DNA of 64,000 nucleotides from Ligustrum vulgare. Lineage: Eukaryota; Streptophyta; Magnoliopsida; Lamiales; Oleaceae. The stretch spans positions 57,060,096 through 57,124,095 of the forward strand of contig OY743177.1 in NCBI GenBank assembly GCA_963555705.1, in the 5' to 3' direction. Below the pieces are notes generated by a model that did no database searches, was not told the origin of the DNA, and saw only the letters and a list, made by a program, of their open reading frames with translations. This document shows, piece by piece, positions 11,514 through 58,136 of this stretch (the first letter of the stretch is position 1; every line of letters starts with the position of its first letter). The translations under genes and the position numbers were made by a program.

Positions 11514-14500
11514 TCACCTTAGAAAACCAATTGAAGCTGAGCACAGCTCCAATTTTTCTTTAGTTACCGTCTTAGTCATCATGTCGGCTGGGTTCTTGCT
11601 ACCCTGGATCTTCTCTAGTGTTAATACTTCATCCTCTAGAAGAGACCTGATGAAGTGATAACGGAGTCCAATGTGCTTGGTTCTAGAATGAAATGCTGAA
11701 TTCTTTGCCAGATGTATCGCACTCTGACTATCACTGTGCAAAATATTCTTCTCCTGACTGAATCCCAATTCTGCCAACAAACCCTGTAACCAGATCATTT
11801 CTTTGCTAGCCTCGGTTACTGCCACGTACTCTGCTTCTGTAGTGGATAGAGCAACAATCTTCTGTATCTGCGAAATCCAGCTAACTGCAGTAGTACCTAC
11901 TGTGAAAACATAACCAGTAGTACTTCGTCTGCGATCTACCTCGCCAGCAAAATCTGCATCTACAAAGCCTTGTAGAGTCACCTCGCCTCGTCCAAAGCAT
12001 AAGCATCTATCAGTAGTTCCCCGTAGATATCTTAATATCCACTTTACTGCTTCCCAATGCTGCTTTCCTGGATTTGCCATAAACCTACTCACAACTCCCA
12101 CTGCATGAGCAATATTTGGTCTGGTACAAACCATGGCATACATTAAACTTCCAATGGCTGAGGCATATGGTATTTTAGCCATGAAGTTTATCTCGTCCTC
12201 TGTCTTAGGACTCTGATCACTAGATAGACGGAAGTGATTAGCTAGTGGCGTGCTGACAGCCTTCGCACTGCACATGTTAAATCTCTGCAGAACTTGACTA
12301 ATGTACTTGGCCTGAGATAACTGCAAGATACCCTTCTGCTTATCTCTGAAAATCCTCATTCCGAGAATCTGCTTCGCTGTACCCAAGTCCTTCATTTCGA
12401 ATTCTGCTGACAGCTGCATCTTTAACTTCTTGATTTCGTCCATATCTGAGCCTGCTACTAACATATCATCGACATAAAGTAGCAAAATTATATAACTGGA
12501 CTCGAATCTCCTGAAGTAGCAACAATGGTCAGCATTACATTTGAAGTAGCCATTTTTCTGCATAAATCCGTCGAACTTCTTGTACCACTGTCTCGGGGCT
12601 TGCTTTAAGCCATACAGGCTCTTCTTCAATTTGCAAACGAGCTTCTCCTTTCCTTTGACTGAGAAGCCTTCTGGCTGCTGCATATATATTTCCTCCTCAA
12701 GGTCACCATGGAGGAAAGCAGTTTTTACATCTAACTGCTCCAAGTGCAAACCCTTTGCTGCAACAATACTCAAGACTGATCTGATTGTTGTCAGCTTCAC
12801 AACTGGCGAAAATATTTCCGTGTAGTCAATTCCTTCTTTCTGCTGGAAACCTTTGACCACCAACCTCGCCTTGTATCTCTTTGATCCATCATGTTCCTCC
12901 TTGATTCTGTACACCCACTTATTGTGTAGAGCTCTCTTTCCTGTAGGTAACTCGGCTAGTTCCCACGTCTGGTTAGAGATGAGAGACTTTATCTCATCTT
13001 TCATTGCAAGCTCCCACTTGCCAGAATCACCGACTTGACATGCCTCATGATAGCATTCAGGTTCACCTGCATCAGTAAGTAACATGTAACTCATGTACTT
13101 TCTATTTGGAACATGAGGTCTGGTTGACCTTCTAAGAACAGGGACTGGAGACTGTGATGCATCAGTCTCTAGAACAGGCTCCTGTAACTGCAGATCCTCC
13201 TCTGTCTGCTGCGACGTACTACTTTCTGGAGCATCATCCAACTCAACATATGTTGGATCATCATGTACTGTGTCATCGGACTGCACTGCATTTCTGTCCT
13301 TGTACATAACCTTCTCGTTGAATATGACATCCCTGCTTCTGATGACCTTTCTGTTCTGGTCATCCCATAAGCGGTAGCCGAACTCATCTCCGCCATATCC
13401 AATGAATGTGCACTTTAGTGATTTGGGGTCTAGCTTGCCCCTTGCCTGATCACTTATATGTGCATATGCGACACATCCAAAAACTTTCACGTGGGAAAGT
13501 TTTATTTCTTTTCCGCTCCATACTTCCTCCGGTATCCTGTACTCCAACGGTACCGAGGGTCCTCGATTGATCAAGTACACCGCTGTGTTGACTGCTTCTG
13601 CCCAAAACTGTTTGGGCAAGCCTGCATGTAACCTCATGCTTCTGGCTCTCTCCGTTAATGTCCGGTTCATACGTTCTGCAACTCCATTTTGCTGTGGAGT
13701 CCCTGGCAACGTCCTCTCCATTTTGATGCCATTCTGATAACAGAACTTTTTGAATGCCATATCCGTATATTCTCCTCCGTTGTCGGACCTCAGCTTCTTT
13801 ACTCGCAATCCTGTTTCATTTTCCACCATGGCTTTCCACTTCTTGAACACATCAAATACTTCGGACTTGTGTCTCAAGAAATAAACCCACACTTTTCTCG
13901 AGTGGTCATCAATGAAAGTCACAAAGTATGACTTTCCGCCAATAGATGAAACTGCGGTTGGTCCCCAGACGTCTGTATGGACTAACTCAAGTTTCTCTTG
14001 CTTCCGAGTTCTGCCACTAGTGTTGAAACTCACCCTGGTCTGCTTCCCAAAGATGCAACTCTCGCATAAGTCTATATCAGTAGACTGAAGCTCTGGTAGT
14101 TTCCCCTTTGCATGCATATACTTGAGTCCCTTCTGACTCATATGCCCAAGTCTCTGGTGCCACAAGTTTGGGCCCTCCTTGCTTTCAGCAACTGCAATTG
14201 TCACACAAGCATCCGTCGTTGTGTAAAGGGTGCCAGTATCCTTGCCTCGAGCGATAATCATGGCGCCCTTGGTGATCTTCCAGTTATCACCAGAGAAGGT
14301 GGTGACATGTCCTTCTCCCGACAATTGCTTGACGGAGATCAAGTTCTTCCTCAATTCTGGAATATGTCTCACGTCCTTCAGCTTCCACACAGATCCATTG
14401 ATCTTTATCTGTACATCACCTTTTCCGACCACGCCACACGGTTGATCATTACCGAGATATACTCTGCCAAAATCACCCCGCGTATAGTTTACAAAAAACT

Positions 14501-15413
14501 CCTTGTTTGAGGTAGCATGAAAAGATGCTCCGGAATCAATCACCCAGTATTCCGTTTTTCTCTCCAAAGAGCATATCAAAGCATCGTCCGCTTCCTCTTC
14601 CACAACATTAACCTCCGTCCTGTTCTCCTTTTCTTTTGGAGGTGTTGGACACTGGTTTTTGTAATGACCGGTCTTGCCACACTTCCAACATTCCACAACC
14701 TTTGTCTTGTTAGGATTGTTTGGATTTCTGGACCTCGATCTACCACTTCTGAATTTGCCGTTGCCCCGCCCATTTCCTCTGTTAGAACTCCTGCCTCTGC
14801 TTTCCACGTTCAACGCCGATCCTGAAGTTGAGACACCTTCTGACTGTCGTCTGATCTCCTCCGTTAAGATCATGCTTACGACATCATCGAACTTCAATTT
14901 TGACTTTCCGGCAGAGCCACTAATTGCTGTGACTGTACCATTCCAGCTGTCTGGCAACTGCCCAAGAATCAACAGAGCTCGAACTTCATCACTAAAAGTG
15001 ATTTCGACTGTGTTTAGCTGGTCCGTCACTTCATTGAATTCATTTAGGTGCTCCCCAACTCTTCCGCCTTCGGCCATCTTCATATTGAACAACTTTTTAA
15101 TTAAGTGGACTTTATTTGCTGCAGATGGCTGTTCGTACATGCTAGAGAGGGCTGCCATGAGAGACTCTGTCGTCTTCTCATTTTTTATGTTGAAGGCCAC
15201 TGACTTTGACGACGTCAGCCTGATTGTGCCGAGTGCTTTTCGATCAAGCAACTCCCAATCCCCCTGGCTTATATCTTCTGGCTTTTCTTTTAGTGGTTTG
15301 TATAGATCCTTCTGGTACAAATAGTCCTCCATTTGCATTTTCCAAAATCCAAAATTTGAACCATCAAATTTATCAATTTTGGATATTTTCTCATCTGTCG
15401 ACATTGCTCCCAC
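11514..15413 (-). CDS. Copia gag-pol polyprotein, TNT1-94-like, 1299 aa
   Basis: A single frame encodes all functions of a Ty1/Copia element. The gag (UBN2-type) region covers about residues 10-200, followed by an Arg/Gly/Asn-rich stretch and a CCHC zinc knuckle at C242, C245, H250, C255 (nucleic-acid binding). Protease has the DSGAS catalytic motif at D293. Integrase has its HHCC zinc part around H419-C453 and the catalytic triad D481, D544, E580 with the D-x35-E spacing of the family. Reverse transcriptase has D895 in LDVKTAF and YVDD at 980-983. RNase H has D1152, E1193 and D1228. Start: MGAMSTDEK, with a second Met at residue 4 equally possible. Length, motif order and catalytic residues are all as expected for a functional element. 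It acts in cytoplasmic virus-like particles, then integrates the cDNA into nuclear DNA. Confidence 0.96.
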   Translation of the reverse strand: MGAMSTDEKISKIDKFDGSNFGFWKMQMEDYLYQKDLYKPLKEKPEDISQGDWELLDRKALGTIRLTSSKSVAFNIKNEKTTESLMAALSSMYEQPSAANKVHLIKKLFNMKMAEGGRVGEHLNEFNEVTDQLNTVEITFSDEVRALLILGQLPDSWNGTVTAISGSAGKSKLKFDDVVSMILTEEIRRQSEGVSTSGSALNVESRGRSSNRGNGRGNGKFRSGRSRSRNPNNPNKTKVVECWKCGKTGHYKNQCPTPPKEKENRTEVNVVEEEADDALICSLERKTEYWVIDSGASFHATSNKEFFVNYTRGDFGRVYLGNDQPCGVVGKGDVQIKINGSVWKLKDVRHIPELRKNLISVKQLSGEGHVTTFSGDNWKITKGAMIIARGKDTGTLYTTTDACVTIAVAESKEGPNLWHQRLGHMSQKGLKYMHAKGKLPELQSTDIDLCESCIFGKQTRVSFNTSGRTRKQEKLELVHTDVWGPTAVSSIGGKSYFVTFIDDHSRKVWVYFLRHKSEVFDVFKKWKAMVENETGLRVKKLRSDNGGEYTDMAFKKFCYQNGIKMERTLPGTPQQNGVAERMNRTLTERARSMRLHAGLPKQFWAEAVNTAVYLINRGPSVPLEYRIPEEVWSGKEIKLSHVKVFGCVAYAHISDQARGKLDPKSLKCTFIGYGGDEFGYRLWDDQNRKVIRSRDVIFNEKVMYKDRNAVQSDDTVHDDPTYVELDDAPESSTSQQTEEDLQLQEPVLETDASQSPVPVLRRSTRPHVPNRKYMSYMLLTDAGEPECYHEACQVGDSGKWELAMKDEIKSLISNQTWELAELPTGKRALHNKWVYRIKEEHDGSKRYKARLVVKGFQQKEGIDYTEIFSPVVKLTTIRSVLSIVAAKGLHLEQLDVKTAFLHGDLEEEIYMQQPEGFSVKGKEKLVCKLKKSLYGLKQAPRQWYKKFDGFMQKNGYFKCNADHCCYFRRFESSYIILLLYVDDMLVAGSDMDEIKKLKMQLSAEFEMKDLGTAKQILGMRIFRDKQKGILQLSQAKYISQVLQRFNMCSAKAVSTPLANHFRLSSDQSPKTEDEINFMAKIPYASAIGSLMYAMVCTRPNIAHAVGVVSRFMANPGKQHWEAVKWILRYLRGTTDRCLCFGRGEVTLQGFVDADFAGEVDRRRSTTGYVFTVGTTAVSWISQIQKIVALSTTEAEYVAVTEASKEMIWLQGLLAELGFSQEKNILHSDSQSAIHLAKNSAFHSRTKHIGLRYHFIRSLLEDEVLTLEKIQGSKNPADMMTKTVTKEKLELCSASIGFLR

Positions 15414-22400: not shown

Positions 22401-23674
22401 TAATATTATTAGGATCATTTGTACTCCATTGAATTAAAAATCCTTGATTGCTAATATTGTATTAGCCATCAAGGATGATGAGCCTATATATACATATAAG
22501 CTAAGTAAAATGTTTACTAAAAGAGATGGCAGGAAGCTATGAAATCTTAGATGAACACCATGTATGAAAACAAGTTTTGGAACTTGTATTGTTCCATCTA
22601 AGAGGGTAAAACCCATAGCTTTAAATAAGTTTATAAGAAAAAAGATCGACATGGATGGAAATGTTCATCATCATAGGATAAGACTAGTGATAAAGGTTTA
22701 CAAGCAAAGCCAATTACTTGACTCTAATGAAACATTCACATTAGTCCTAATATGTGAATCAATTTTGATTCTGCTTGAGGTAGCAACATAATGTGACTAT
22801 GAGATTTGAAGATGGATTAAAAAAATGCGGGAGTCTTAATGAGGATTGTATATTATACAATCCGAAGGTTTTGAATCCAAAGGGATCCAAACATAGTATG
22901 ACAGCTATTGATCTAATTATGGATTAAAGCAAGCCTCATGGAGCTAGAATCTTAATTTTGATGAGTTAATCAAAGAGTTTAACTTTATCAAGATTTAAGA
23001 TGAACATAGGATGTGTACAAAAGGTTAGTGAGAGTGTTCAACATTCCTGATACTATATGTAGATGACATTTAATTGATCATAAATTAATTTCCTTAAAAA
23101 TTAAAAGTGCAATTAATAAAAATTTCTCCACGATGAATTTGAGAAATAAGACCTTTATTTGGGAACTAGAATCTGTAGAGACAGATTTGAAATGTTGTTT
23201 GATTTCTCAATCCAAGTACATAGATATAATGCTAATATGGTTAGGATAAAAGAATCAAAGGTGTGATTCAATCTCAAGAGTCATGAAATTAATCTTCTCA
23301 AATTAGTGTTTAGAATACAGATTGAGAAAGAATGATGTGAAGAAAATACTTGATTGTTTGACAATAAGATCTTCTAAAACACAACACTATCTACGACACA
23401 TTTTGTATTCTTGCGTACTTGAGAAGTACTAAGAACACAAAAGACATGAGAAATGTAGACTTACAGTCTTTGTGTATAGAAATACCACCCTTCAGTTTGA
23501 GAAAGCATGATGGGAATTTTCAGTCTGATTGTGAATTAACTCATAGTAGTGTTGTAGTAAGTTTGAAAGGTTTCAAATAATGATGACTACTATACTTTAC
23601 AAACAATAATAGATGCATAGATGCTTGGTAAGAAATCACGATTGTTGAGTTCATTAGTGAACTATAAGTGTTCC
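22400..23674 (+). pseudogene. Decayed Copia reverse transcriptase / RNase H, left part
   Basis: Read in shifting frames, the plus strand follows Copia RT. WQEAMKS and MNTMYENK (near 22520-22570) are the start of RT. KIDMDGNVHHHRIRLVIKVYKQ and ETFTLV follow (near 22645-22745). Then come SLNED, NPKGSKH (near 22830-22900), SKPHGA in place of LKQAS (near 22930), an LYVDD-like segment near 23050, ISQSKYID near 23200, LAYLRSTKNTKDM near 23420, and the start of the last RNase H segment at about 23610-23674. Many stops and frameshifts make it non-functional. It stops abruptly at the GTTCC site where the LTR array begins and resumes at 35323. Confidence 0.75.
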
Positions 23675-24437
23675 TGATGTGATCCCGGGAGGGGAACACG
23701 ACGAACACGCGGAATAAACGCCGGGAAAGTTCCTAATTCATGTTGGAACGGATGATAACAATGCAATTCTGACCTCACGATGCAAGAACTAGGGGTATAT
23801 TAAACCCACGACCTGTTACAATGCGGAGATAAGAACTACAAATGGGTGAACGGAACAAGGAATGTCCAAATCCTTGATAAGTTCGATTTGGTGAACGCCA
23901 CAAATATCTCACGATATTTGATAAGTCCAAAAGTGTTCAATCCAGAACAATATTTGAGGGAAAACCACTCAACACAATTTTCATTAATTCAAGTCTATTT
24001 TACAATGAATGGAAAATAGAATATAAATAACCAAAATAAAACCCTAACCGCTAATGGACTCAAAAAAGAGTTCTAACTATCCTAAAATAGCTAAAACTGA
24101 AAAAGGAAATAAAAATCTAAAAATGGAAATAAAATCCACATTATTTGCGTTAAACTGGATTTACGGCAGTGACAACATAACTTACTGTCGTAACTGTATT
24201 TCTGTTTAAGGATTACGGCCGTGACCATAAACTTACGGCCGTAACTGTTAAAATCTTGGAATTCTTCAATTTTCACCCGAGGATGACTTACGGCCGTGAC
24301 AAGGTAGCTTACGACCGTAAATACGGTTTTGATCCATTTTGACCTGGTTTGATCTTTGAAGCTCTCCGAACCTCCTTGAGTTCTTGTTTTGACTTGAATA
24401 TTTGAATTTTCCATCAAGCCCACTACAATTCGTATCA
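23675..24437 (-). repeat. Array LTR 1 (outer, 3' LTR), 763 bp
   Basis: Leftmost full LTR. On the minus strand it is immediately preceded by the polypurine tract AAAGAAGGAGGGAA at 24438-24451, so it is the true 3' LTR. It carries six TTACGGCCGTAA-like palindromes between about 24169 and 24335. Confidence 0.9.
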
Positions 24438-25846
24438 TTCCCTCCTTCTTTAGAATGATTCGTCCCGAATCATATCGTTGTTCCTGTTGTGCAACTGCAC
24501 CACCTAGATCAAATGGAAGAAATTTTCCTCCATTGCACAATGTCAACCAATAATATGCTGCCATTTGGGATACTTGGATGGATTGAAGCAGAAAATCCTA
24601 TGGGAATTGATGATGGTGTTGCCCAAACTTCCAAGTTTGATTAACCTGCAAGAAAGAATTAAATAAAATGGGGAGGGAAATGTTAGTTTCATGAGGTACA
24701 AGGTATGAATCCTTGTATTGATGAATCATCATCGCCAACTCCTCTTTGGGAATCATGAGGCCCTTCTCTTTACCTCGTTCTTCCTTTGCAACTTCTTGTT
24801 CACCCCCCTCTATTTCTTTTCTCTCAAGCTAGGTTACTTTTTCTAACTCTAGATCTTCTAGCCCAACCATCTCTTCTAAATTTCTGGGCTCAACTAACTC
24901 TCCTTAGTTTTCATGCTCAACCACATCTTTTTTGAACTCCACATTTTTATCACCATGTTCATACACTACTTCGTTACTACCCAAATGTTGATCTTCCACT
25001 TCAAGGCTCAAATTTTGAACTTCCACCCCAACTTCCAACTCGCCCTCCTTCTTTTCAACATCCTTATCCTGAGGCTCTAACTGTGAATCCACTATATTCT
25101 CACCTTCATTCCCCTATTGTAATTTAGCTTCAGCCTCTCTTTTCCCCACTTTCCTTTTTAACTTTGCTTCTTTTCTAGCATTTCGCTTATACATCATCTT
25201 TTCCTCATAAATTTCTGTTCGACTTTTCAAAAGCACCCTCATATTAATCTCTTCATCCCAGTCAACTACAATCCCAACTCTAGGTTTATGGTTACGCATA
25301 TATTCCATTTCACGCCGTTTAGCAAGTTCTGCACTAAAAAATATCCACTGAGTTCTTAACTTTCCCCAACCTAGCATCTAATTTTGCTTCCATTCTAGCA
25401 GCGAACTCCTCAAACCGCATCTTCATCATGACAAGCAGAGAAGACTGATGTTTATCTATATCAGATGATGAATTTTCTCGAAGTGTAGACATTTGGAATG
25501 GAATTGAACAATTTGACACAAGGATTTCGAATGAAATTTAATTTTGACTTGTAAGGTAAGGAATATAAAGAATTTAAGGAAATTCAAAGAAAGTGGTTCG
25601 TGAATTTTCGAATATTTCCTTTTTTTTTTTTTTTGGAATTATGGATGAATTTTTGGATTAAATAAATAAACAATTTTTTTTAAATAAATCCGAAAATTCG
25701 ACATGATCGTAACAAAACAAACGAGACTAAATTTGGACGAAAAATGAAGATAATAAACACTTTTGAATTTTTGTTGGATTTTTATATGAATCAAAAACTG
25801 AAAATTTTTATTGAGGCAAAGAACAAGAAAACTTAAGAAAAGAAAG
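24438..25846 (-). other. Longest interior of the array, with polypurine tract
   Basis: This interior holds 751 bp (24438-25188) that are missing from every other unit. It includes the polypurine tract and the C-terminal part of a charged open frame. From 25189 (ATACATCATCTT) onward it aligns with all other interiors. It ends in a fused junction with a partial LTR at ACTCAACA (25847-25854). Confidence 0.85.
24450..25519 (-). pseudogene. Non-autonomous element protein, broken, charged and probably coiled-coil
   Basis: Read on the minus strand from 25519, three frames follow each other. The first starts MSNCSIPFQMSTLREN and has FEEFAARMEAKLDA (25334-25519). The second has ELAKRREMEYMRNHKP and a Lys/Arg/Glu-rich tail (25114-25377). 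The third is Glu/Asp-rich (24904-25092). A last piece reads GGKFLPFDLGG and ends KKEG in the polypurine tract, running into the LTR. Composition suggests a coiled coil and nucleic-acid or particle association, but no zinc knuckle, protease or polymerase motif is visible. I do not recognise the family. Stops and frame changes break it here. In the 33773-34559 unit the first two parts are open for 109 codons. Confidence 0.55.
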
Positions 25847-26265
25847 ACTCAACACAATATTCATTAATTCAAGTCTGTTTTACAATGAAAGGAAAATAGA
25901 ATATAAATAACCAAAATAAAACCCTAGTCGGTAATGGACTCAAAATAGAGTTCTAACTATCCTAAAATAGCTAAAACTGAAAAAGGAAATAAAAATACAA
26001 AAATGGAAATAAAATCTGCATTATTTACATTAAACCGGATTTACGGCCGTGACCATAAACTTACGGCCGTAACTGTTAAAATCTTGGAATTCTTCAATTT
26101 TTACCCCAGGATGACTTACGAACGTGACAAGGTAGCTTACGGCTGTAAATACGGTTCTGATCCATTTTGACCTGGTTTGATCTTTGAAGCTCTCCAAACC
26201 TACTTGAATTCTTGTTTTGGCTTGAATATTTGAATTTTCCGTCAAGCCCACTACGATTCGTATCA
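25847..26265 (-). repeat. Partial LTR in the array
   Basis: Only the last 419 bp of the LTR remain, fused to interior sequence at the shared octamer ACTCAACA. The primer site and the other end of the LTR are gone. The right edge (CGTATCA, then ATACATCAT) is intact. Confidence 0.85.
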
Positions 26266-27044
26266 ATACATCATCTGTTCCTCATAAATTTCTGTTCGAC
26301 TCTTCAAAAGCGCCCTCGTATTAATCTCTTCTTCCCAATCAACTCGTCTCCCAACCCTAGGTTTATGGTTACGCTTATATTCCCTTTGACGCCGTTTAGA
26401 AAGTTCTGCACTAAAAAATATTCACCGAGTTCTTAACTTTCCCCAACTTAGCATCTAATTTCGTATCAAATTTCGCTTCCATTCTCGCAAGGAACTCCTC
26501 AAACCGCTTCTTCATCATGACGAGCAGAGAAGAATGATGGTTATCTATATCAAATGATGAATTTTCTCGAAGTGTAGACATTTGTAATGGAATTGAATAA
26601 TTTGACGCAAGGATTTCTAATGAAATTTAATTTTGACTAGGAAGACAAGGAATATAAAGAATTTAAGGAAATTCAAGAAAGTGGTTCTTCAATTTTCGAA
26701 TATTTCCTTTTTTTTTTAATTATGGATGAATTTTCGGATTAAATAAATAATCAATTTTTTAAAAAAATAAATCCGAAAATTCAACACGATCGCAACAAAA
26801 CAAACGAGACTTAATTTGGACGAAAAATGAAGAAAATAAACACTTTTGAGTTTTTGTTGGATTTTTATATGGATCAAAAACTGAAAAATTTTACTGACAC
26901 GAAGAACAAGAAAACTCAAGAAAAGAAAGACTCAACAACAAGATATGGATGATTTTGTGTAGAATAGATGATAAAAACACAAAATCAAACTAGGATAGAA
27001 AAGAAAAACTAAATCTGAATTCAGACTCCAGCTCCGATACCTAC

Positions 27045-27760
27045 TGATGTGATCCCGGGAGGGGAACACGACGAACACGCGAAATAAAATCCAGGAAAGT
27101 TCTGAATTCAGGTTGCAACAGACTATAACAATGCAACCCCGACCTCACGACGCAAGAACCAGGGGTATATTTAACCGGAGACCCATTACAATGCGGAGAT
27201 AAGAACCACAAAGGGGTGAAGGCCACAAGGAATATTCAGATCCTTGATAAGTTTGAAAGTGTTCAATCCAGGACAACATTTTAAGGAAAACCACTCAACA
27301 CAATTTTCATTAATTCAAGTCCGTTTTACAATGAATGGAAAATAGAATATAAATAACCAAAATAAAACCCTAGTCTAATGGACTCAAAATAGAGTTCTAA
27401 CTATCCTAAAATAGCTAAAACTGAAAAAAGAAATAAAAATATAAAAATGGAAATAAAATTCGTATTATTTGCGTTAAACTGGATTTACGGCCGTGACAAC
27501 ATAACTTACGGCCATGACTGTATTTCTGTTTAAGGAATAGGCCGTGACCATAAACTTACGGACATAACTGTTAAAATCTCTAAATTCTTCAATTTTTACC
27601 CGAGGATGACTTACGGCCGTGACAAGATAGATTACGGCCATAAATACGGTTCTCATCCATTTTAACCTGGTTTGATCTTTGGAGCTCTCCGAACCTGTTT
27701 GAGTTCTTGTTTTGACTTTAATATTTGAATTTTCCGTCAATCCCACTACGATTCATATCA
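27045..27760 (-). repeat. Array LTR 2, 716 bp
   Basis: Carries the roughly 44 bp deletion after CCTTGATAAG that is also present in LTRs 3 and 4. The preceding primer site reads GCTCCGATACCTAC (plus strand), slightly mutated. The right end is CATATCA. Confidence 0.9.
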
Positions 27761-28527
27761 ATTCATCATATTTTCCTCATGAATTTCTGTTCGAACCTTC
27801 AAAAGCGCCCTTGCATAAATCTCTTCATCCCAATCAACTTCAATCCCAACCTTAAGTTTATGGTTACGCGTATATTCCCTTTCACGCTGTTTAGCAAGTT
27901 CTGCACTAAAAAATATCCACTGAGTTCATAACTTCCCCCAACTTAGCATCTAAATTTCTCTTCCATTCTCCCGGCGAACTCCTCAAACCGCTTCTTCATC
28001 ATGACAAGCAGAGAAGACTGATGGTTATCTATATCAAATGATGAATTTTCTCGAAGTGTAGACATTTGTAATGGAATTGAATAATTTGACGCAAGGATTT
28101 CGAATGAAATTTAATTTTGACTTGCAAGGCAAGGAATATAAAGAATTTAAGGAAATTCAAGAAATTGGTTCTTCAATTTTCGAATATTTCCTTTTTTTTG
28201 AATTATGGATTAATTTGGGATTAAATAAATAAACAATTTTTAAAAAAAAATAAATCCGAAAATTCGACACGATCGCAACAAAACAAACGAGACTTAATTT
28301 GGATGAAAAATGAACAAAATAAACACTTTTGAGTTTTTGTTGGATTTTTATATGGATCAAAAACTGAAAAATTTTACTGACACGAAGAACAAGAAAACTC
28401 AAAAAAAGAAAGACTCAACAACAAGATATGGATGATTTTGTGTAGACTAGATGATAAAAACACAAAATCAAACTAGGATAGAAAAGAAAAACTAAATCTG
28501 AATTCAGAGTCCAGCTCCGATGTCAAC

Positions 28528-29244
28528 TGATGTGATCCCGAGATGGGAACACGACGAACAGGCTGAATAAACGCCGGAAAAGTTCCGAATTCAGGTTGCA
28601 ACAGACTATAACAATGCAACCCCGACCTCACGACGCAAAAATCAGGGGTATATTTAACCGGAGATCCGTTACAATGCGGAGATAAGAACCACAAAAGGGT
28701 GAAGGCCACAAGGAATATCCAGATCCTTGATAAGTTTGAAAGTGTTCAATCCAGGACAACATTTTAAGGAAAACCACTCAACACAATTTTCATTAATTCA
28801 AGTCCGTTTTACAATGAATGGAAAATAGAATATAAATAACCAAAATAAAACCCCAGTCTAATGGACTCAAAATAGAGTTCTAACTACCCTAAAATAGCTA
28901 AAACTGAAAAAGGAAATAAAAATATAAAAATGGAAATAAAATTCGCATTATTTGCGTTAAACTGGATTTACTGCCGTGACAACATAACTTACGGCCGTGA
29001 CTGTATTTTTGTTTAAGGATTACGGCCGTGACCATAAACTTACGGACGTAACTGTTAAAATCTCTGAATTCTTCAATTTTCACACGAGGATGACTTACGG
29101 CCGTGACAAGATAGCTTACGGCCGTAAATACGGTTCTGATCCATTTTGACCTGGTTTGATCTTTGAAGCTCTCCGAACCTGCTTGAATTCTTGTTCTGAC
29201 TTTAATATTTGAATTTTCCGTCAATCCCACTACGATTCGTATCA
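28528..29244 (-). repeat. Array LTR 3, 717 bp
   Basis: Very close to LTR 2: the same deletion and the same shortened CCAGTCTAATGGACTC or CTAGTCTAATGGACTC segment. This indicates local duplication of neighbouring units. Confidence 0.9.
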
Positions 29245-30020
29245 ATTCATCATATTTTCCTCATAAATTTCAGTTCGAACCTTCAAAAGCGCCCTTGCAT
29301 AAATCTCTTCATCCCAATCAACTCCAATCACAACCCTAAGTTTATGGTTACGCGTATATTCCCTTTCACGCTGTTTAGCAAGTTCTGCACTAAAAAATAT
29401 CCACTGAGTTCATAACTTCCCCCAACTTAGCATCTAAATTTCTCTTCCATTCTCCCGGCGAACTCCTCAAACCGCTTCTTCATCATGACAAGCAGAGAAG
29501 ACTGATGGTTATCTATATCAAATGATGAATTTTCTCGAAGTGTAGACATTTGTAATGGAATTGAATAATTTGACGCAAGGATTTCGAATGAAATTTAATT
29601 TTGACTTGCAAGGCAAGGAATATAAAGAATTTAAGGAAATTCAAGAAAGTGGTTCTTCAATTTTCGAATATTTCCTTTTTTTTTTTTTTTTTTTGAATTG
29701 TGGATGAATTTTCGAATTTAATAAATAAACAATTTTTTTAAAATAAATTCGAAAATTCGATATGATCGCAGCAAAACAAACGAGACTTAATTTGGACGAA
29801 AAATGAAGAAAATAAACACTTTTGAATTTTTTTTTGATTTTTATATGGATAAAAAATTAGAAAATTTTACTGACATGAAGAACAAGATAACTCAAGAAAT
29901 GAAAGACTCAACAACGAGATATGGATTATTTGGTGTAGAGTCGATGATAAAAACAAAAAATCAAACTAGGATAGAAAAGAAAAACAAAACCTGAATTCAG
30001 AATCCAGGTCTAATATCAAC

Positions 30021-30687
30021 TAATGTGATCCGGGAGGGGAACACGATGAACCCGCGAAATAAATGTCGAAAAGTTTCAAATTCAGATTGGAACGGACGAT
30101 AACAATGCAACCCGACCTCACGACGCAAGAACCAGGGGTATATTAAACCCGAGACCCGTTACGATGCGGAGATAAGAACCACAAAGGGGTGAATGCCACA
30201 AGGAATGTCAAGATCCTTGATAATTTCGAAACTGTTCAATCCAGAATAATATTTTAGAGAAAACCACTCAACACAATTTTCATTAATTCAAGTCTGTTTT
30301 ACAAGGAATGGAAAATAGAATATAAATAACCAAAATAAAACCTTAGTCGCTAAGTTCTAACTATCCTAAAATACCTAAAACTGAAAAAGGAAATAAAAAT
30401 TCAAATCCGCATTCTTTACGTTAAACTGGATACATGGCCGTGACAACATAACTTACGGCCTTGACTGTATTTCTGTTTAAGAATTACGGCCGTAACTGTT
30501 AAAATCATGGAATTCTTCAATTTTCACCCGATGTTGACCTACGGCCGTGACAAGGTAGCTTACGGCCGTAAAAACAGTTCTGATACAATTTTACCTGGTT
30601 TGATCTTTGAAGCTCTCCGAACCTGCTTGAATTCTTGTTTTGGCTTGAATATTTGATTTTCAGTCAAGCCCACTACGATTCATATCA
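30021..30687 (-). repeat. Array LTR 4, 667 bp, degenerate
   Basis: Starts TAATGTGATCC (TG changed to TA). It shares the 44 bp deletion of LTRs 2-3 and has further deletions, including part of the palindrome block. Confidence 0.85.
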
Positions 30688-31454
30688 ATACATCATCTTT
30701 TCCTCATAAATTTCTGTTCGACTCTACAAAGGCCCCCTCGCATTAATCTCTTCATCCCAATCAACTCAAATCCCAATCCTAGGTTTATGGTTACGCCTAT
30801 ATTCCATTTCACGCCGTTTATCAAGTTCTGCATTAAAGAATATCCACCGAGTTCTTAACTTTCCCCAACTTAGCATCCAATTTCGCTTCCATTCTCGCAG
30901 CGAACTCCTCAACCCGCTTCTTCATCATGACGAGCAGAGAAGAATGATGGTTATCTATATCAAATGATGAATTTTCTCGAAGTGTAGACATTTGTAATGG
31001 AATTGAATAATTTTTCGCAAGGATTTCGAATGAAATTTAATTTTGACTAGGAAGACAAGGAATATAAAGAATTTAAGGAAATTCAAGAAAGTGGTTCTTC
31101 AATTTTCGAATATTTCCTTTTTTTTTTAATTATGGATGAATTTTCGGATTAAATAAATAATCAATTTTTTTAAAAAATAAATTCGAAAATTCAACACGAT
31201 CGCAACAAAACAAACGAGACTTAATTTGGACGAAAAATGAAGAAAATAAACACTTTTGAGTTTTCGTTGGATTTTTATATGGATCAAAAACTGAAAAATC
31301 TTACTAGCACGAAGAACAAGAAAACTCAAGAAAAGAAAGACTCAACAACAAGATATGGATGGTTTTGTGTATACTCGATGATAAAAATACAAAATCAAAC
31401 TAGGATAGAAAAGAAAAACAAAACCTGAATTCAGAGTCCAACTCTGATACCAAC

Positions 31455-32217
31455 TGATGTGATCCCGGGAGGGGAACACGACCAACATGCGGACTAAACG
31501 CCGGGAAAGTTTCGAATTCAGGTTGGAACAGACGATAACAATGCAACCCCGACCTCATGTCGCAAGAACCAGGGGTATATTAAACTCGAGACTCGTTACG
31601 ACGAGAAGATAAGAATCACAAAGAGGTGAACACCACAAGGACTGTCCAGATCCTTGATAAGCTCGATTTGGTGAACACCACAAATATCTCACAATATTTG
31701 ATAAGTTCGAAAGTGTTCAATCCAGAACAATATTTTTGGAAAAACCACTCAACACAATTTTCATTACTTCAAGTCTGTTTTACAATGAATGAAAAATAGA
31801 ATATAAATAACCAAAATAAAACCCTAGTCACTAATGGACTAAAAATAGAGTTCTAACTATCCTAAAATAGCTAAAACTGAAAAAGGAAATAAAAATACAA
31901 AAAATGGAAATAAAATCCGCATTATTTGCGTTAAACTGGATTTACGGCCGTGACAACATAACTTACGAACGTGACTGTATTTCTGTTTAAGGATTAGGCC
32001 GTGACCATAAACTTACGGCCATGACTGTTAAAATCTTGGAATTCTTCAATTTTCACCCGAGGATGACTTACAGCCGTGACAAGGTAGCTTACGGCCGTAA
32101 ATACGGTTCTGATCCATTTTGACCTGGTTTGATCTTTGAAGCTCTCTGAACCTGCTTGAATTCTTGTTTTGGCTTGAATATTTGAATTTTCCGTCAAGCC
32201 CACTACGATTCGTATCA
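31455..32217 (-). repeat. Array LTR 5, 763 bp
   Basis: Full length like LTR 1. It keeps the segment deleted in LTRs 2-4. The preceding primer site is CTCTGATACCAAC. Confidence 0.9.
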
Positions 32218-33010
32218 ATACATCATCTTTTCCTCATAAATTTCTGTTCGACTCTTCAAAAGCGCCCTCGCATTAATCTCTTCATCCCAATCAACTCAAA
32301 CCCTAAACCTAAGTTTATGGTTACGCCTATATTCCCTTTGACGCAGTTTAGCAAGTTCTGCAATAAAAAATATCCACTGAGTTCTTAACTTTCCCCAACT
32401 TAGCATCTAATTTAGCATCCAATTTCGCTTCCATTCTCGCAGCGAACTCCTCTAACCACTTCTTCATCATGACGAGCAGAGAAGACTAATGGTTATCTAT
32501 ACCAGATGATGAATTTTCTCGAAGTATAGACATTCGGAATGGAATTTAATAATTTGACACAAGGATTTCGAATGAAGTTTAATTTTGACTTGGAAGGCAA
32601 GGAATATAAAGAATTTAAGGAAATTCATTAAAGTGGTTCTTGAATTTTTCAAATATTTTATTTTTTTTATTTTTTTTTAATTGTGGATGAATTTTTGGAT
32701 TAAATAAATAAACAAAAATATTTTTTTTAAATAAATTCAAAAATTCGACACGATCGCAACAAAAAAAAACGAGACTTAATTTGGACGAAAAATCAAGAAA
32801 ATAAGCACTTTTGAATTTTTGTTGGATTTTTATATGGATCAAAAACTGAAAAATTTTACTGACAAGAAAAACAAGAAAAGAAAGAAAAGAAAGACTCATA
32901 AACAAGATATGGATGATTTTGTGTAGACTCGAAGATAAAAACACAAAATTAAAATAGGATAGAAAAGAAAAATAAATAACCTGAATTTAGAGTCCAGCTT
33001 TGATACCAAC

Positions 33011-33772
33011 TGATGTGATCCCAGGAGGGGAACACGACGAACACGCAGAATAAATGCCTGAAAATTTTCAAATTCAGGCTGGAACGGACGATAACAATGC
33101 AACCCCGACCTCACGTTGCATGAACCAGGGGTATATTAAACCCGATACTCGTTACGACGAGAAGATAAGAACCACAAAGGGGTGAACGCCACAAAGATTG
33201 TCCAGATCCTTGAGAAGTTTGATTTGGTGAACACCACAAATATCTCACAATATTTGGTAAGTTCAAAAGTGTTTAATGCAGAACAATATTTGAGGAAAAA
33301 CCACTCAACACAATTTTCATTACTTCAAGTCTGTTTTACAATGAATGGAAAATAGAATATAAATAATCAAAATAAAACCTTAGTCGCTAATGGACTCAAA
33401 ATAGAGTTCTAACTATCCTAAAATAGCTAAAACTGAAAAAGGAAATAAAAATACAAAAATGGAAATAAAATCCGCATTATTTGCGTTAAATTGGATTTAC
33501 GGTCGTGACAACATAACTTACGACCATGACTGTATTTTTGTTTAAAGATTATGGCCGCTACCATAAACTTACGGCCGTAACTGTTAAAATCTTAGAATTC
33601 TTCAATTTTCCCCCGAGGATGACTTACGGCCATGACAAGGTAGCTTACGGCCGTAAATACGGTTCTGATCCAATTTGACCAGGTTTGATCTTTGAAGCTC
33701 TTCGAACCTGCTTGAATTTTTGTTTTGGCTTGAATATTTGAATTTTCCGTCAAGCCCAAACGATTAGTATCA
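33011..33772 (-). repeat. Array LTR 6, 762 bp
   Basis: Full length. On the minus strand its first three bases (TGA) serve as the stop codon of the 109-codon frame in the adjoining interior. Confidence 0.9.
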
Positions 33773-34099
33773 ATACATCATCTTTTCCTCATAACTTTCT
33801 GTTTGACCTTTCAAAAGCACCCCCGCATTAATCTCATCATCCCAATCAACTCCAATCCCAACCCTAGGTTTATGGTTACGCCTATATTCCCTTTCACGCC
33901 ATTTAGCAAGTTCTGCACTAAAAAATATCCACTGAGTTCTTAACTTTCCCCAACATAGCATCTTCGCTTCCATTCTCGCAGCGAACTCCTCAAACCGCTT
34001 CTTCATCATGACAACCAGAGAAGACTGATGGTTATCTATATCAGATGATGAATTTTCGTGAAGTGTAGACATTTGGAATGGAATTGAATAATTTGACAC
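33770..34099 (-). CDS. 109-codon open frame in the array, N-terminal part of the element's protein
   Basis: This is the longest uninterrupted copy of the element's reading frame. It begins MSNYSIPFQMSTLHEN, continues FEEFAARMEAK and SAELAKWREREYRRNH, and ends EEKMMY. The stop is the TGA that begins the neighbouring LTR. The downstream half of the original frame was removed by the 751 bp deletion shared by six units. It is highly charged, with helix-forming segments. There is no recognised domain, and whether it is translated is unknown. Confidence 0.4.
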   Translation of the reverse strand: MSNYSIPFQMSTLHENSSSDIDNHQSSLVVMMKKRFEEFAARMEAKMLCWGKLRTQWIFFSAELAKWREREYRRNHKPRVGIGVDWDDEINAGVLLKGQTESYEEKMMY

Positions 34100-34545
34100 A
34101 AAGATTTCAAATGAAATTTAATTTTGACTTGGAAGGCTAGGAATATAAAGAATTTAAGGAAATTCATTAAAGTGGTTCTTGAATTTTCTAATATTTCCTT
34201 TTTTTTTTCTTTTTTTTTCTTTTTTGAATTATGGATGGATTTTCGGATTAAATAAATAAACAAAAATAATTTGTTTTTTAAATAAGTTCGAAATTTCGAC
34301 ACGATCGCAACAAAACAAACGAGACTTAATTTGGATGAAAAATGAAGAGAATAAACATTCTTGAATTTTTGCGGTATTTTTATATGGATAAAAAACTAGA
34401 AAATTTTACTGACACGAAGAACAAGAAAACTCAAGAAAAGAAAGACCCAACAACAAGATATGGATGATTTTGTGTAGACTCGATGATAAAAACACAAAAT
34501 CAAATTATGATAGAAATGAAAAACAAAACTTGAATTCAGAGTCCA

Positions 34546-34557
34546 GCTCTGATACCA
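34546..34557 (-). other. Primer-binding site of the outermost array unit
   Basis: TGGTATCAGAGC on the minus strand next to LTR 7, complementary to initiator tRNA-Met. Equivalent, more or less mutated sites precede LTRs 2-6. Confidence 0.85.
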
Positions 34558-34559
34558 AC

Positions 34560-35322
34560 TGATGTGATCCCGGGAAGGGAACACGACGAACACGCGGAAT
34601 AAACGCCGGAAAAGTTCCTAATTCAGGTTGGAACGGACGATAACAATGCAACTCCAACCTCATGACGCAAGAACCAGGGGTATATTAAACCCAAAATCCA
34701 TTACGACGCAGAGATAGGAACCATAAAGGGGTGAACGCCACAATGAATGTCCAGATCCTTGAGAAGTTCGATTTGGTGAACTCCTCAAATATCTCACAAT
34801 ATTTGATAAGTTCGAAAGTGTTCAATCCAGAACAATATTTGAGGGAAAACCACTCAACACAATTTTCATTAATTCAAGTATGTTTTACAATGAATGGAAA
34901 ATAGAATATAAATAACCAAAATAAAACCCTAGTCGCTAATGGACTAAAAATAGAGTTCTAATTATCCTGAAATAACTAAAACTGAAAAAGGAAATAAAAA
35001 TACAAAAATGGAAATAAAATCCGCATTATTTGCGTTAAACTGGATTTACGGCCGTGACAACATAACTTACGACCGTGACTGTATTTTTGTTTAAGGATTA
35101 TGACCATGACCATAAACTTACGGCCGTAACTGTTAAAATCTTGGAATTCTTCAATTTTCACCCGAGGATGACTTACGGCCGTGACAAGGTAGCTTACGAC
35201 CGTAAATACGGTTCTGATCCATTTTAACCTGGTTTGATCTTTGAAGCTCTCCAAACCTGCTTGAATTCTTGTTTTTGCTTGAATATTTGAATTTTCCATC
35301 AAGCCCACTACGATTCGTATCA
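34560..35322 (-). repeat. Array LTR 7 (outer, 5' LTR), 763 bp
   Basis: Rightmost LTR, ending CGTATCA directly at the GTTCC duplication. By orientation it is the 5' LTR. Its primer site (CTCTGATACCAAC on the plus strand) is at its left edge, 34547-34559. Confidence 0.9.
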
Positions 35323-35640
35323 GTTCCTGGCATTGTAGCTCCAATAATGAATAATATGACGACAATGGAGCCATTTCATAAGTGAGAGAAGCATGGTCTC
35401 ATTGATGATTTGAGTATGTATTTAGGGACTACTATTTCATTTGAAAATTGAAGAATTCATGCCTACTAACCTTGAGAATGTTGAATGTGTGACGCGTCAT
35501 ATATCAAAGATCCATATGTAAAATCACTATCCCAGCAGGAATATGATTATCATATAACCTCATTATGCATATGATACACAAGCTATAGGATCTAGTGGGA
35601 GTAAATAAATGTAATGCTTTAAATCAAATAGTTGAGATAA
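35323..35640 (+). pseudogene. Decayed Copia RNase H, right part
   Basis: Continues the frame interrupted at 23674. The left part ends in a segment like EFISEL-VFL. Here follow a segment like APIMNNMTTMEP and a mutated RSHQ-KH region. CTAGTGGGAG at about 35592-35601 looks like the polypurine tract of that element. The GTTCC bases are present on both sides of the array. Confidence 0.6.
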
Positions 35641-46293: not shown

Positions 46294-49200
46294 TTAATCA
46301 ATTCTATGAAGATTGTCTGATTGTGTCGTCGAGTTATTTTCCTCAGCCGGTGGTTGAGCTGCAGTTATATCTGCTTGTACTATATTTACTTTTGGCAGTG
46401 GACTGTACTTTCTAAGCAGCCTATCTTTGTTTTCTTTCCACCATTCTTCTGCCTGCTGCTCGGCAAACCTTCGCTTGCTGAAGAAATGTAGGAATTAGCA
46501 ATGGTAAGTATTAAAATCGTAAAGTGCAAAAAAGCTACAGTAAACTGGAATCGTAGTTTTTATGTGTACTACAAGGAGAGTACAGGTGAACGAACAAGTA
46601 TATACTGAATAACATTATTCATTTTTCAGAATGAACACAGGTCTTGCTTAAAATTTGCTAACTGGAAATATGAAAAAAGATATCATGTTAAGTACCTGAA
46701 CCTAACCCTCTTGAATATCTTGGTTCCATCTGCAAGTAGTATGAGTGTAACATAAACACCTGGTTCAAATTGTTCAATAACTTCCTTTCGTCCCTCACTT
46801 CTAGCTGCTTCGACCGTCCCAGAGACACCTTCTGTACTAAGTTGATTTACGCCTTTTGTGTCAGAAACAGACGGTCCATTGGTTTCCTGTGGAGTTCCGT
46901 CAACACTCTGTGATGTGTCCTGGACTCCTGCTGCTTCCGTTTGATCTTCCGATGTTGACTCTGGTGGCATAGCCGAATTATCTTCGTATGCTTGATTTTG
47001 AACATTGTCAAGAAAGGATTCGATTTGAGAATGCATTGCTTTAAATGATTCACTCTCACAAATCTCTGGAGGCATTTTCTCTGTAATTTCTTTTAACTGA
47101 AATGTAAACAAATGAAAATGCTTATTAGTGCAATATTGGACAAAAATTATATCTGAAACTATATTCTTTTATTCATTGAAAGATAATTAAAAGGATTACA
47201 AGCTTGAACTATAGATAGAGAGATTTCAAATTAAAAGAAGCCAGAAAGAACTAGATGAGACTAGTAGAAGAAAAAGAAAACAACCTATCAAATCTGATAT
47301 AACCACTTATATCAGCATGTATGGGGTTATATCCATAATCATGTGGATATAATCCCATATAACAACTCACGAGAACTGAAAATGGATTCTAGCACATTCT
47401 AGTACATTCCATTTCAACTAATTCAACTGACATTTCCACAAATATAAGTCCATTACAAGAGTAAAAGTCATGCAAACTTGCGTCTTGCCAATTTTCTTTA
47501 TGTAGAACAAATGACATGCAGTGTGGATTTTGGAAACATTAGAATACTGAAATAAGTGAAAATTAAGAAGTTTTCCACCTAGATCTTGTGGTATGCTTAA
47601 GGTTTAACGAGTGTTCAAAAAGTTACAGGCATTCATGTAAATCCATAAGTTGAAAAATAAGATAGAATATTTAATTTAGATGCTTGTGTCAGGGATGAAT
47701 GCATGTTATTGCAAGCCATGATGTGTTCAAGCTACAGTCAGCTTCACTATGTAAAGGCTCTTTGAAAACTTTGATATGTAATTTTAGCAGATTGGGTTTC
47801 TCAGAAATCAAATTACTACATTCAGACGCTCAATAACTATTTTCATAATGTAGTTCCTCTTTCCTTTCTGGTGTAAATGTTTTAAAAGAAAAATTGAGAG
47901 ATTTTATAGTTAAAAATTTGAAAATTGTGCAAGTCACATTTGCAAAAATGGATGAGCATATATGGAACAACTGAAGTACTTGTACTGTGATGGTCTTGAT
48001 GGCTTGCATTGCAGTTCTACACTTGGAAGACCTGTCGGCAGCCAATGAAGCAGCTTGTTGGGCAGTCTTCTTCAACTTCTGAATCTCCATGTCTTGGACC
48101 TCACTTTTTTGCTTTAGACTCTTAACCTAAAAACATAATAACAGAAATGAGTAATTTTTAGCAAAGGAAATCTTCATCCGTCTAATCTATAAATTAAATT
48201 GAATTATAAAACTTTACGAAAGGAAACTCTTACCTGGTTTTGAAGTTTGGAAACTTCTTGGTTCAAAAGATCGTTGGTCTTCTTTAAACTATCAATGACA
48301 CCCCTCGAAAATACAGGGGCAGCAGAGTGTGGAGGACTTGGTCTTCTTGAGTATGGTGAAGCAGGTCTTGATTTGGACTGAGATTGTGGCTGAGGCATCA
48401 GATGCTGTGGAGATTGTGGCTGAGGCATCAGATGCTGTGGTGCTAATGTCGCAACAGGATTTAATGCATACTGAATGGCACTAAATGAACTAGGGAAAGC
48501 AATATCTTTTAGCTGTAGAAGTGAAGGAACTTGCGAAGCACGCACAATTGAATAAGAATCATATTTGTTTCCCTGCTTTCCAGATTTAATTTCGAGGTAC
48601 TTGACAGGTTCCACACTGGGAGAGAGCAAAATTCTGGAACTCCTCCTGTCTCCCCGGTCTACCCTACTACTATAATCTATTGGATGATGAGGGGAAGTCA
48701 TTCTTCGTTTAATAGTCCCAGCATTTCCAGGCTCTGCAGCTTTTTTAAGTTTCATATAGCAAGGGTCACACACACGATGTGGTTTTCCGGGAGTAGGAGC
48801 CAGTGCTGCCCGAATTGCCTTTTTTGAACTGCAAGCATGACAATGAACTAATCCACAGTTATAGCAGTTATGTCTTTTTCGGGTAAAACCAAATGCTTGC
48901 CTGCAACCAGTGCAAACTGATTGATCTGCACCAGAAACCCACTTATGAATGCAAATACTTGCTGTGTAGCTTGATCCACATGCTATATTCTTTATATGCC
49001 TGTCTTTTAGAGCTTCAACCAATTTTGGAACATCACAATCTTCTGAATCTCCATGTCCTAATCTTCCATTCGCACCTCTTCCCCATGTAAACATTTCACT
49101 TCTTGAAGTGAGAGCAGCAACATGATGTGCCCCACAGGCTATTTGTTCGACGAACTCCCCGACCAATCTATCCTGAACCAGGACAGGTGATCTTCCATCA

Positions 49201-57379: not shown

Positions 57380-57740
57380 ACAAATGTCTTGAAGAAGGGC
57401 TTTCCTTCTTATTGCCCAAGTGACATAGCTCAAGAAGTCCTCCTTATTTCCTAAGTGGTATAGCTCAAGAAGCCCTCCTTATTGCCCAAGTGGCATGGCT
57501 CAAAAAGCCCCCTGATTGCCCAATCGGCATGGCTCAAGAAGCCCTCCTTATTGCTCAAGTGGCCCAAGAACCCTGTCCAATCGGCATGGCTCAAGAAGCC
57601 CTTCTTATTGCTCAAGTGGTTCAAGAAGCCCTCCTTATTGTCCAAGTGGCATGGCGTCAAGAAGTCCCCATATTGCTCAAGTGGCATGATTCAAGAAGCC
57701 CTCCATATTGCCTAAGTGGCATGGCTCAAGGACCTCGTCA
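57380..57740 (+). repeat. Minisatellite block A (about 35 bp unit)
   Basis: About ten copies of a unit like GCCCTCCTTATTGCCCAAGT followed by GGCATGGCTCAAGAA, with some units shortened. A 106-codon frame across it is a by-product of the repeat. Confidence 0.85.
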
Positions 57741-58136
57741 CATGATGACCCCTTCAAAAAGGACCTCGTCACATTATGACTCCTTCAAAAAGGACCTCGT
57801 CACATTATGACCCCTTCAAAAAGGACCTCGTGATATGATGGCCCCTTAAAAAAAGGACCTCGTCACATGATTACACCTTTGAAAAGGACCTCATAACATG
57901 ATGAACCTTTAAAAAAAATGACCTCATTACATGATGACCCCTTCAAAAAGGACCTTGTCACATGATAACTCCTTCAAAAAGGACCTTGTAAAATGATAAC
58001 CTTTTTACAAAAAGGACCTCGTCACATAATAACCCCTTCAAAAAGGACCTCGTCACATGATGACCCCTTAAAAGACCCCGTCACATGATGACCCTTTAAA
58101 AAATGACCTCGTCAAATGATTACCGCTTCCAAGGGA
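57728..58136 (+). repeat. Minisatellite block B (31 bp unit)
   Basis: About thirteen copies of a 31 bp unit, GGACCTCGTCACATGATGAC then CCCTTCAAAAA, well kept at the left and more diverged to the right. Confidence 0.88.

What the first reader, a model, noticed from the sequence alone, without database searches (positions are those of the whole stretch)
23675..35322. A seven-LTR head-to-tail polymer of one non-autonomous retrotransposon with a single target duplication
LTR-interior units repeat about every 1.5 kb with shared LTRs, and GTTCC lies only at the two outer edges. Normal insertions have two LTRs. Either a multimeric cDNA inserted once, or one insertion grew in place by unequal exchange, in effect a satellite array being born from a retrotransposon. 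No pol exists in any unit.
Basis: partly seen in the sequence, partly recalled or inferred. Interest (0 to 1): 0.8.

Follow-up and report, generated by a model that had tools for sequence, protein, structure and literature searches.

The report
Eight-LTR tandem retrotransposon array, single insertion
In this plant chromosome a single inserted retrotransposon has become a head-to-tail row of seven units; such rows are known in plants, and related arrays elsewhere in the same genome suggest how a mobile element can turn into satellite DNA.

Summary
The array is real. Window 23675-35322 holds eight LTRs (one truncated) alternating with seven interiors on the minus strand. GTTCC flanks only the outer edges; two paralogous copies of the host repeat show the uninterrupted site. 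Two-LTR relatives with their own 5-bp duplications exist elsewhere. Array LTRs and interiors are each monophyletic against the copies sampled, so one founder is likely. Six of seven interiors share a 751-bp loss that fuses the LTR end exactly to the interior, a joint found nowhere else. The star-like base of the trees puts most units at or soon after insertion. Later patches of near identity (312 bp without a difference) show exchange in place. The array is old; growth looks stalled: its most similar LTR pair differs by 5.2%. Multi-LTR insertions with one target duplication are described (Wukong, rice), so this is a new member of a known kind. Outside the window the lineage has a six-LTR row whose units are far younger than its insertion, and a sister family forms a row of at least 126 units over 327 kb.

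The parts
23670..23674 (.). target-site duplication GTTCC, left copy
   Evidence: empty sites
23675..24437 (-). LTR 1 (outer left; 763 bp; TG...CA)
24438..24452 (-). polypurine tract (reverse complement TAAAGAAGGAGGGAA); the other six interiors lack this segment
   Evidence: sequence; LTR|PPT pattern gives one hit in the array (C10:57084516) among the 100 of 134 places listed
24438..25846 (-). interior a: the only long interior; keeps the 751-bp segment 24438-25188; its PBS side is lost by a deletion across ACTCAAC
25847..26265 (-). LTR 2, truncated, also lacking about 50 bp between short direct repeats
26266..27044 (-). interior b, short form; LTR end fused directly to ATACATC at 26265/26266
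27045..27760 (-). LTR 3 (44-bp deletion)
27761..28527 (-). interior c, short form; 312 bp identical to interior d
28528..29244 (-). LTR 4 (44-bp deletion; closest to LTR 3)
29245..30020 (-). interior d, short form
30021..30687 (-). LTR 5 (44-bp deletion and further losses)
30688..31454 (-). interior e, short form; 0.8-2.1% from interior b over a long stretch
31455..32217 (-). LTR 6
32218..33010 (-). interior f, short form
33011..33772 (-). LTR 7
33773..34559 (-). interior g, short form
34546..34557 (-). primer-binding site TGGTATCAGAGC (reverse complement of GCTCTGATACCA); diverged copies precede LTRs 3-7
   Evidence: sequence; assignment to initiator tRNA-Met is recalled
34560..35322 (-). LTR 8 (outer right; the 5' LTR in element orientation)
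35323..35327 (.). target-site duplication GTTCC, right copy

Best explanation
A non-autonomous LTR retrotransposon of an ordinary two-LTR family inserted once, on the minus strand, into another dispersed repeat and duplicated GTTCC (shown). It became a tandem row by homologous exchange between its direct-repeat LTRs, giving units that share LTRs (inferred). The unit that multiplied was a shortened one in which the LTR's terminal CA is joined straight to interior sequence; six of seven interiors carry it (shown). That joint looks integrase-made, because it sits exactly at the LTR end with no microhomology: either a close sister copy inserted into the element and LTR-LTR recombination removed the rest, or an autointegration product recombined into it (inferred). 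Most units existed at or soon after insertion (inferred from trees that are star-like at the base). Later, units still exchanged sequence in patches (shown), and LTRs 3 and 4 share a younger ancestor, probably a duplication in place (inferred). Growth then stopped and the array decayed (inferred from one assembly).
For: One TSD and empty sites. Ordinary relatives: four of six two-LTR pairs seen were checked; 4 of 4 have perfect 5-bp TSDs and LTR divergence 6.5-8.1%, against 8.0% for outer LTRs 1 and 8. Single founder: array LTRs monophyletic, UFBoot 100, against 26 and again 31 genome LTRs; interiors monophyletic, UFBoot 100, against 27 genome copies. Private short joint: 5 genome-wide hits at 3 mismatches or fewer, all in the array; 0 of 30 other copies held show it (35 rows, less 2 unrelated matches and 3 repeats of the same element). 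Post-insertion exchange: interiors c/d identical for 312 bp, permutation p about 0.0005, the lowest value 2000 permutations can give, best of 21 pairs; b/e and b/c patches at 0.8-2.1% while most other pairs stay near 8-11%; LTR 3/4 UFBoot 100 on a stem of 0.030, about half the array's depth. Sister array C1:53.043-53.055 Mb: one TSD (ATAAC), left outer LTR with adjoining interior 96.0% against 99.95-100% among the other stretches sampled, which is growth, or at least homogenisation, long after insertion in a related element.
Against: The basal polytomy (supports 19-53) is equally expected if several units arrived together. 19 of 28 array LTR pairs are more diverged than outer pair 1/8, up to 11.75%, more than a strict clock from one founder pair predicts; faster decay of some units, a non-uniform founder, or conversion between the outer LTRs is possible. 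LTRs 1/8 do share a 107-bp identical run (p 0.008 uncorrected), so 8.0% may understate the age. C>T/G>A changes are 54 of 105 private changes in seven LTRs, so methylation decay may contribute. In the left part of the LTR alone, array monophyly is not supported (UFBoot 21). The 44-bp LTR deletion shared by LTRs 3-5 also occurs in 5 of 31 other LTRs in the tree, all five fetched because they match that deletion pattern, so it is not clean evidence of duplication.
Confidence: 0.6

Rival explanations
1. A multimeric cDNA, made by template switching or from a readthrough transcript of a one-LTR circle, inserted once with most units already present; later exchange only polished it.
For: Single TSD and empty sites; star-like base of both trees, with at least four interior and about six LTR lineages separated by very short, poorly supported branches. 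Template switching is proposed in PMC7215508 (Discussion), readthrough of one-LTR circles in PMC11899658 (Discussion).
Against: Needs one long and six short interiors in one cDNA, while I found the short joint nowhere else. The younger LTR 3/4 pair and exchange patches show activity in place. The units of the 6-LTR sister array are far younger than its insertion.
Confidence: 0.22
2. An integrase-made truncated one-LTR circle (autointegration: the LTR end attacks its own interior) supplied the 1.5-kb unit and entered the LTR of a resident copy by homologous recombination, perhaps already multimeric.
For: All six short interiors start exactly at the LTR terminal CA with no microhomology and no extra base. 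The unit equals what a one-sided deletion circle would hold (interior core + PBS + LTR). The lone long interior at one end fits recombination into the right LTR. Autointegration giving truncated one-LTR circles is described in PMC4751563 (passages); that study itself found little sign of it in yeast.
Against: Nested insertion plus one LTR-LTR recombination gives the same joint. A chance deletion ending at the LTR edge cannot be excluded. Interiors a and b-g form one clade, so the circle would have to come from the same or a very close copy.
Confidence: 0.13
3. Assembly artefact: a single element wrongly expanded.
For: None found; long reads were not available to me.
Against: The units are distinguishable (pairwise 5-12%, private indels), which an assembler would not invent.
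Confidence: 0.02
4. Several independent insertions of the family side by side or nested.
For: The LTR-end/interior joint could be the trace of one nested step.
Against: No inner TSD seen. All LTRs and all interiors are monophyletic against the sampled genome copies. Shared joint in six units.
Confidence: 0.03

Closest known systems
Tandem LTR-retrotransposon structures of rice and other plants (Morales-Diaz et al. 2025, PMC11899658; abstract, Results and Discussion read)
   Same: Alternating LTRs and interiors sharing inner LTRs, beginning and ending with an LTR; 10 of the 28 curated rice cases have a perfect 5-bp target duplication.
   Different: The two loci described in detail there are two-unit, three-LTR structures; the 28 rice cases encode retrotransposon domains. 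Here there are eight LTRs, no coding domains found, and six of seven interiors carry an LTR-end-to-interior joint found nowhere else.
Wukong TRIM of maize (PMC4528315; passages and one section read)
   Same: Non-autonomous, multi-LTR insertions of up to seven LTRs, the majority with a TSD; recombination invoked.
   Different: Different family; the LTR here is 763 bp and the ordinary interior about 1.5-1.8 kb, larger than a TRIM (TRIM size limits recalled).
Cassandra tandem arrays (PMC7215508; passages and Discussion read)
   Same: Arrays of LTR-interior units, up to 12 repeats, with unequal exchange or template switching proposed.
   Different: No 5S or other Rfam family in the array at gathering threshold; Cassandra units are called almost identical, units here are strongly diverged.
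CRM1TR/CRM4TR maize satellites (PMC3648361; passages read)
   Same: Satellite loci derived from single LTR-retrotransposons; nested insertion and illegitimate recombination discussed as seed.
   Different: Monomers are LTR-UTR pieces; the C1 array found here keeps whole LTR plus whole interior. The window array is far shorter.

Membership tests
LTR retrotransposon insertion | LTRs with TG...CA ends, PBS and PPT at interior ends | tested here: met
   PPT only in the leftmost interior
LTR retrotransposon insertion | 5-bp target-site duplication at outer edges only | tested here: met
   empty sites
Tandem LTR-RT (sensu PMC11899658) | alternating interiors and shared LTRs, starting and ending with an LTR | tested here: met
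Tandem LTR-RT (sensu PMC11899658) | high identity between units | tested here: inconclusive
   5-12% divergence; 80% of the rice cases have LTRs over 95% identical
Tandem LTR-RT (sensu PMC11899658) | retrotransposon protein domains (true of the 28 curated rice cases; not part of the paper's structural definition) | tested here: not met
   0 of 9 ORFs match Pfam
TRIM | miniature size (recalled: LTRs of a few hundred bp at most, whole element under about 1 kb) | tested here: not met
   LTR 763 bp; six ordinary LTR pairs spaced 2.25-2.54 kb
Autonomous LTR retrotransposon | gag-pol domains | tested here: not met
   9 ORFs of 80 aa or more, longest 157 aa; 0 of 9 match Pfam
Satellite DNA | long, homogenised tandem array | tested here: not met
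   window array: 8 LTRs, 11.6 kb, units 5-12% apart
Array grown in place | unit number varies between individuals at one site | not testable with these tools
   one assembly only

The most novel reading that the evidence does not exclude
One group of related non-autonomous LTR elements in this genome passes repeatedly from dispersed element to satellite. It has an old stalled 8-LTR row (this window), a younger six-LTR row still inside its own target duplication, and a row of at least 126 whole LTR-interior units over 327 kb. The seed of the window array was an integrase-made short unit (autointegration or self-insertion).
Probability: 0.25. Interest if true: 0.7.

Novelty: new member of a known kind. 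Interest (0 to 1): 0.45.

Why it matters
How dispersed mobile elements become satellite DNA is usually argued from end products. Here one genome holds ordinary copies, a stalled short row, a younger homogeneous short row inside one target duplication, and a satellite-scale row of related families. That makes the steps (seed joint, first exchange, homogenisation, arrest) comparable and testable by copy-number variation between individuals.

Tried and rejected
The 44-bp LTR deletion of LTRs 3-5 as a private mark of duplication: rejected, it recurs in other copies. Nested insertion of a distant family copy as source of the short units: not supported, interiors a-g form one clade. Assembly artefact: rejected on unit divergence. 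Pfam and protein searches for a coding role of the interior gave nothing usable: no Pfam family at its cut-off, and one distant unnamed protein, P0001, not followed up. An Rfam search of 23500-35500 gave no match. A literature search for long arrays of whole LTR elements with the terms returned none; this is a narrow search and shows no absence. Support labels printed after re-rooting are shifted by one node; the values quoted are. Host: matches fall on contigs C1-C23 of a 1.385-Gb assembly, contig lengths seen 38.6-100.4 Mb; about 23 chromosomes of this size suggest the olive tribe (Oleeae) by recall only; untested.
Full report
What is there. The window lies on a 62.5-Mb contig (C10) of a 1.385-Gb genome. 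It also holds a copia-type gag-pol frame and an RCC1/FYVE gene. Between 23675 and 35322 eight LTRs alternate with seven interiors in one orientation. The polypurine tract follows LTR 1 and primer-binding-site copies precede LTRs 3-8, which places the element on the minus strand. GTTCC occurs at both outer edges and at no inner LTR edge.

One insertion. The flank is itself a dispersed repeat (40 of 917 candidates scored, 40 matches including the window). The two other copies that I held (L080, L081) align without interruption across the joined flanks. So the 11.65 kb between the two GTTCC copies is a gain at one site.

Ordinary relatives. Among the listed LTR matches outside the array, six same-strand pairs lie 2.25-2.54 kb apart. 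Four of the six were checked: 4 of 4 have perfect 5-bp duplications and LTR divergences of 6.5-8.1%; the array's outer pair shows 8.0%. These and other copies hold all or parts of the 751-bp segment that only the leftmost array interior retains. The array therefore looks as old as ordinary copies. With a recalled grass rate of 1.3e-8 per site per year 8% would be about 3 million years, and more for a slow-evolving tree.

The short unit. In six of seven interiors the LTR's terminal CA is followed directly by ATACATC (ATTCATC in two), which in the long interior lies 751 bp further in. The breakpoint has no microhomology. A pattern across it had 5 hits genome-wide at 3 mismatches or fewer, all in the array; the sixth array copy was missed, so strongly decayed copies elsewhere would be missed too. 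None of 30 other copies held shows the joint. Those copies are a selection: best matches, with 20 further loci fetched. An LTR-end-exact, homology-free joint is what integrase makes (recalled). Self-insertion followed by LTR-LTR recombination, or an autointegration circle recombining into an LTR, both give one long interior at one end and short ones after it, as seen. A chance deletion is not excluded.

History. LTR trees with 26 and then 31 genome LTRs, and an interior tree with 27 genome copies, each put the array in one clade (UFBoot 100). Inside it the base is unresolved (supports 19-53, branches up to 0.004 against tips of 0.02-0.07), apart from LTR 3/4 (100), LTR 6/7 (90-91), interiors b/e (100), c/d (100), b-e (97) and f/g (90). 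So most lineages separated at or shortly after insertion, while some pairs are younger. Interiors c and d are identical over 312 bp (permutation p about 0.0005, best of 21 pairs). Interiors b/e and b/c share other stretches at 0.8-2.1%. This is exchange between units after insertion. Against a simple picture, 19 of 28 LTR pairs are more diverged than the outer pair, up to 11.75%; the outer pair itself shares a 107-bp identical run (p 0.008 uncorrected), so its 8.0% may understate the age; and the left part of the LTR does not support array monophyly (UFBoot 21).

Related arrays. The list is cut and strict: it shows one of the window array's own six junctions. The C1 row (53,043,160-53,054,816) has six LTRs by spacing, inside one ATAAC duplication. 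Its left outer LTR with adjoining interior is 96.0% identical to the other stretches sampled, which are 99.95-100% identical (two parts of the row were not fetched). It grew, or was homogenised, long after it inserted. A sister family (LTR about 73% identical over most of its length) forms a far larger row on C1. The union gives 126 PBS-LTR junctions over 327,198 bp, with 112 of 125 gaps of 2240-2330 bp. Neighbouring units in the 7.5 kb sampled in the middle are 99.5-99.7% identical and carry a 381-402-aa ORF with no Pfam family at its cut-off (one of three frames scanned). The variant junction has 87 exact hits, all in this array. I did not establish its ends or a target duplication there; probes at 54.525 and 54.540 Mb still match, the one at 54.530 Mb only over 118 bp.

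Known or new. Maize Wukong elements reach seven LTRs, the majority of the multi-LTR ones with target duplications (PMC4528315, passages and one section). Cassandra rows reach 12 repeats (PMC7215508, passages and Discussion). Rice and other plants have many tandem LTR-RTs, 10 of 28 curated rice cases with a perfect duplication, of undecided origin (PMC11899658, abstract, Results, Discussion). Maize CRM1TR/CRM4TR are pericentromeric satellites from LTR-UTR pieces (PMC3648361, passages). In Lathyrus nine satellites come from short tandem arrays inside Ogre elements (PMC7004042, passages). The window array is a new member of this kind. Its unusual features are the end-exact joint and its age; the wider interest is the series of rows among related elements of one genome.

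Noticed in passing
G000:C1:54,200,559-54,527,757 (L054, L055, L056, L077, L078, L082-L090): Satellite-scale head-to-tail row of a sister LTR element: at least 126 PBS-LTR junctions over 327 kb, units mostly 2.27-2.31 kb with whole LTR and interior, neighbours 99.5-99.7% identical in the stretch sampled; its exact PBS-LTR variant has no hit elsewhere.
   Followed up: partly
G000:C1:53,043,160-53,054,816 (L102-L106): Six-LTR, five-interior row inside one ATAAC target duplication; sampled inner units 99.95-100% identical while the left outer LTR is 96%, that is, growth or homogenisation long after insertion.
   Followed up: partly
G000:C2:27.16, C9:56.21, C10:37.95 Mb: Pairs of PBS-LTR junctions 1.9-2.4 kb apart on one strand, likely further short tandem rows of related elements.
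   Followed up: no
L054 6310-7455 (-) and equivalents: Open reading frame of 381-402 aa in the C1 array units running from the interior into the LTR, no Pfam family at its cut-off, one distant unnamed relative (P0001, 44% identity over 63%).
   Followed up: partly
window 11514-15413 (-): Uninterrupted 1299-aa copia-type gag-pol reading frame (Pfam gag, integrase, RVT_2).
   Followed up: partly
window 48204-50432 (-): Reading frame of 742 aa with RCC1 repeats and a FYVE finger, a probable host gene exon.
   Followed up: partly
window 57404-59027: Dense minisatellite block of about 30-35-bp units (AAGGACCTCGTCACATGATGACCCCTTCAAA and GACTCCTTCCAAGAG types).
   Followed up: no
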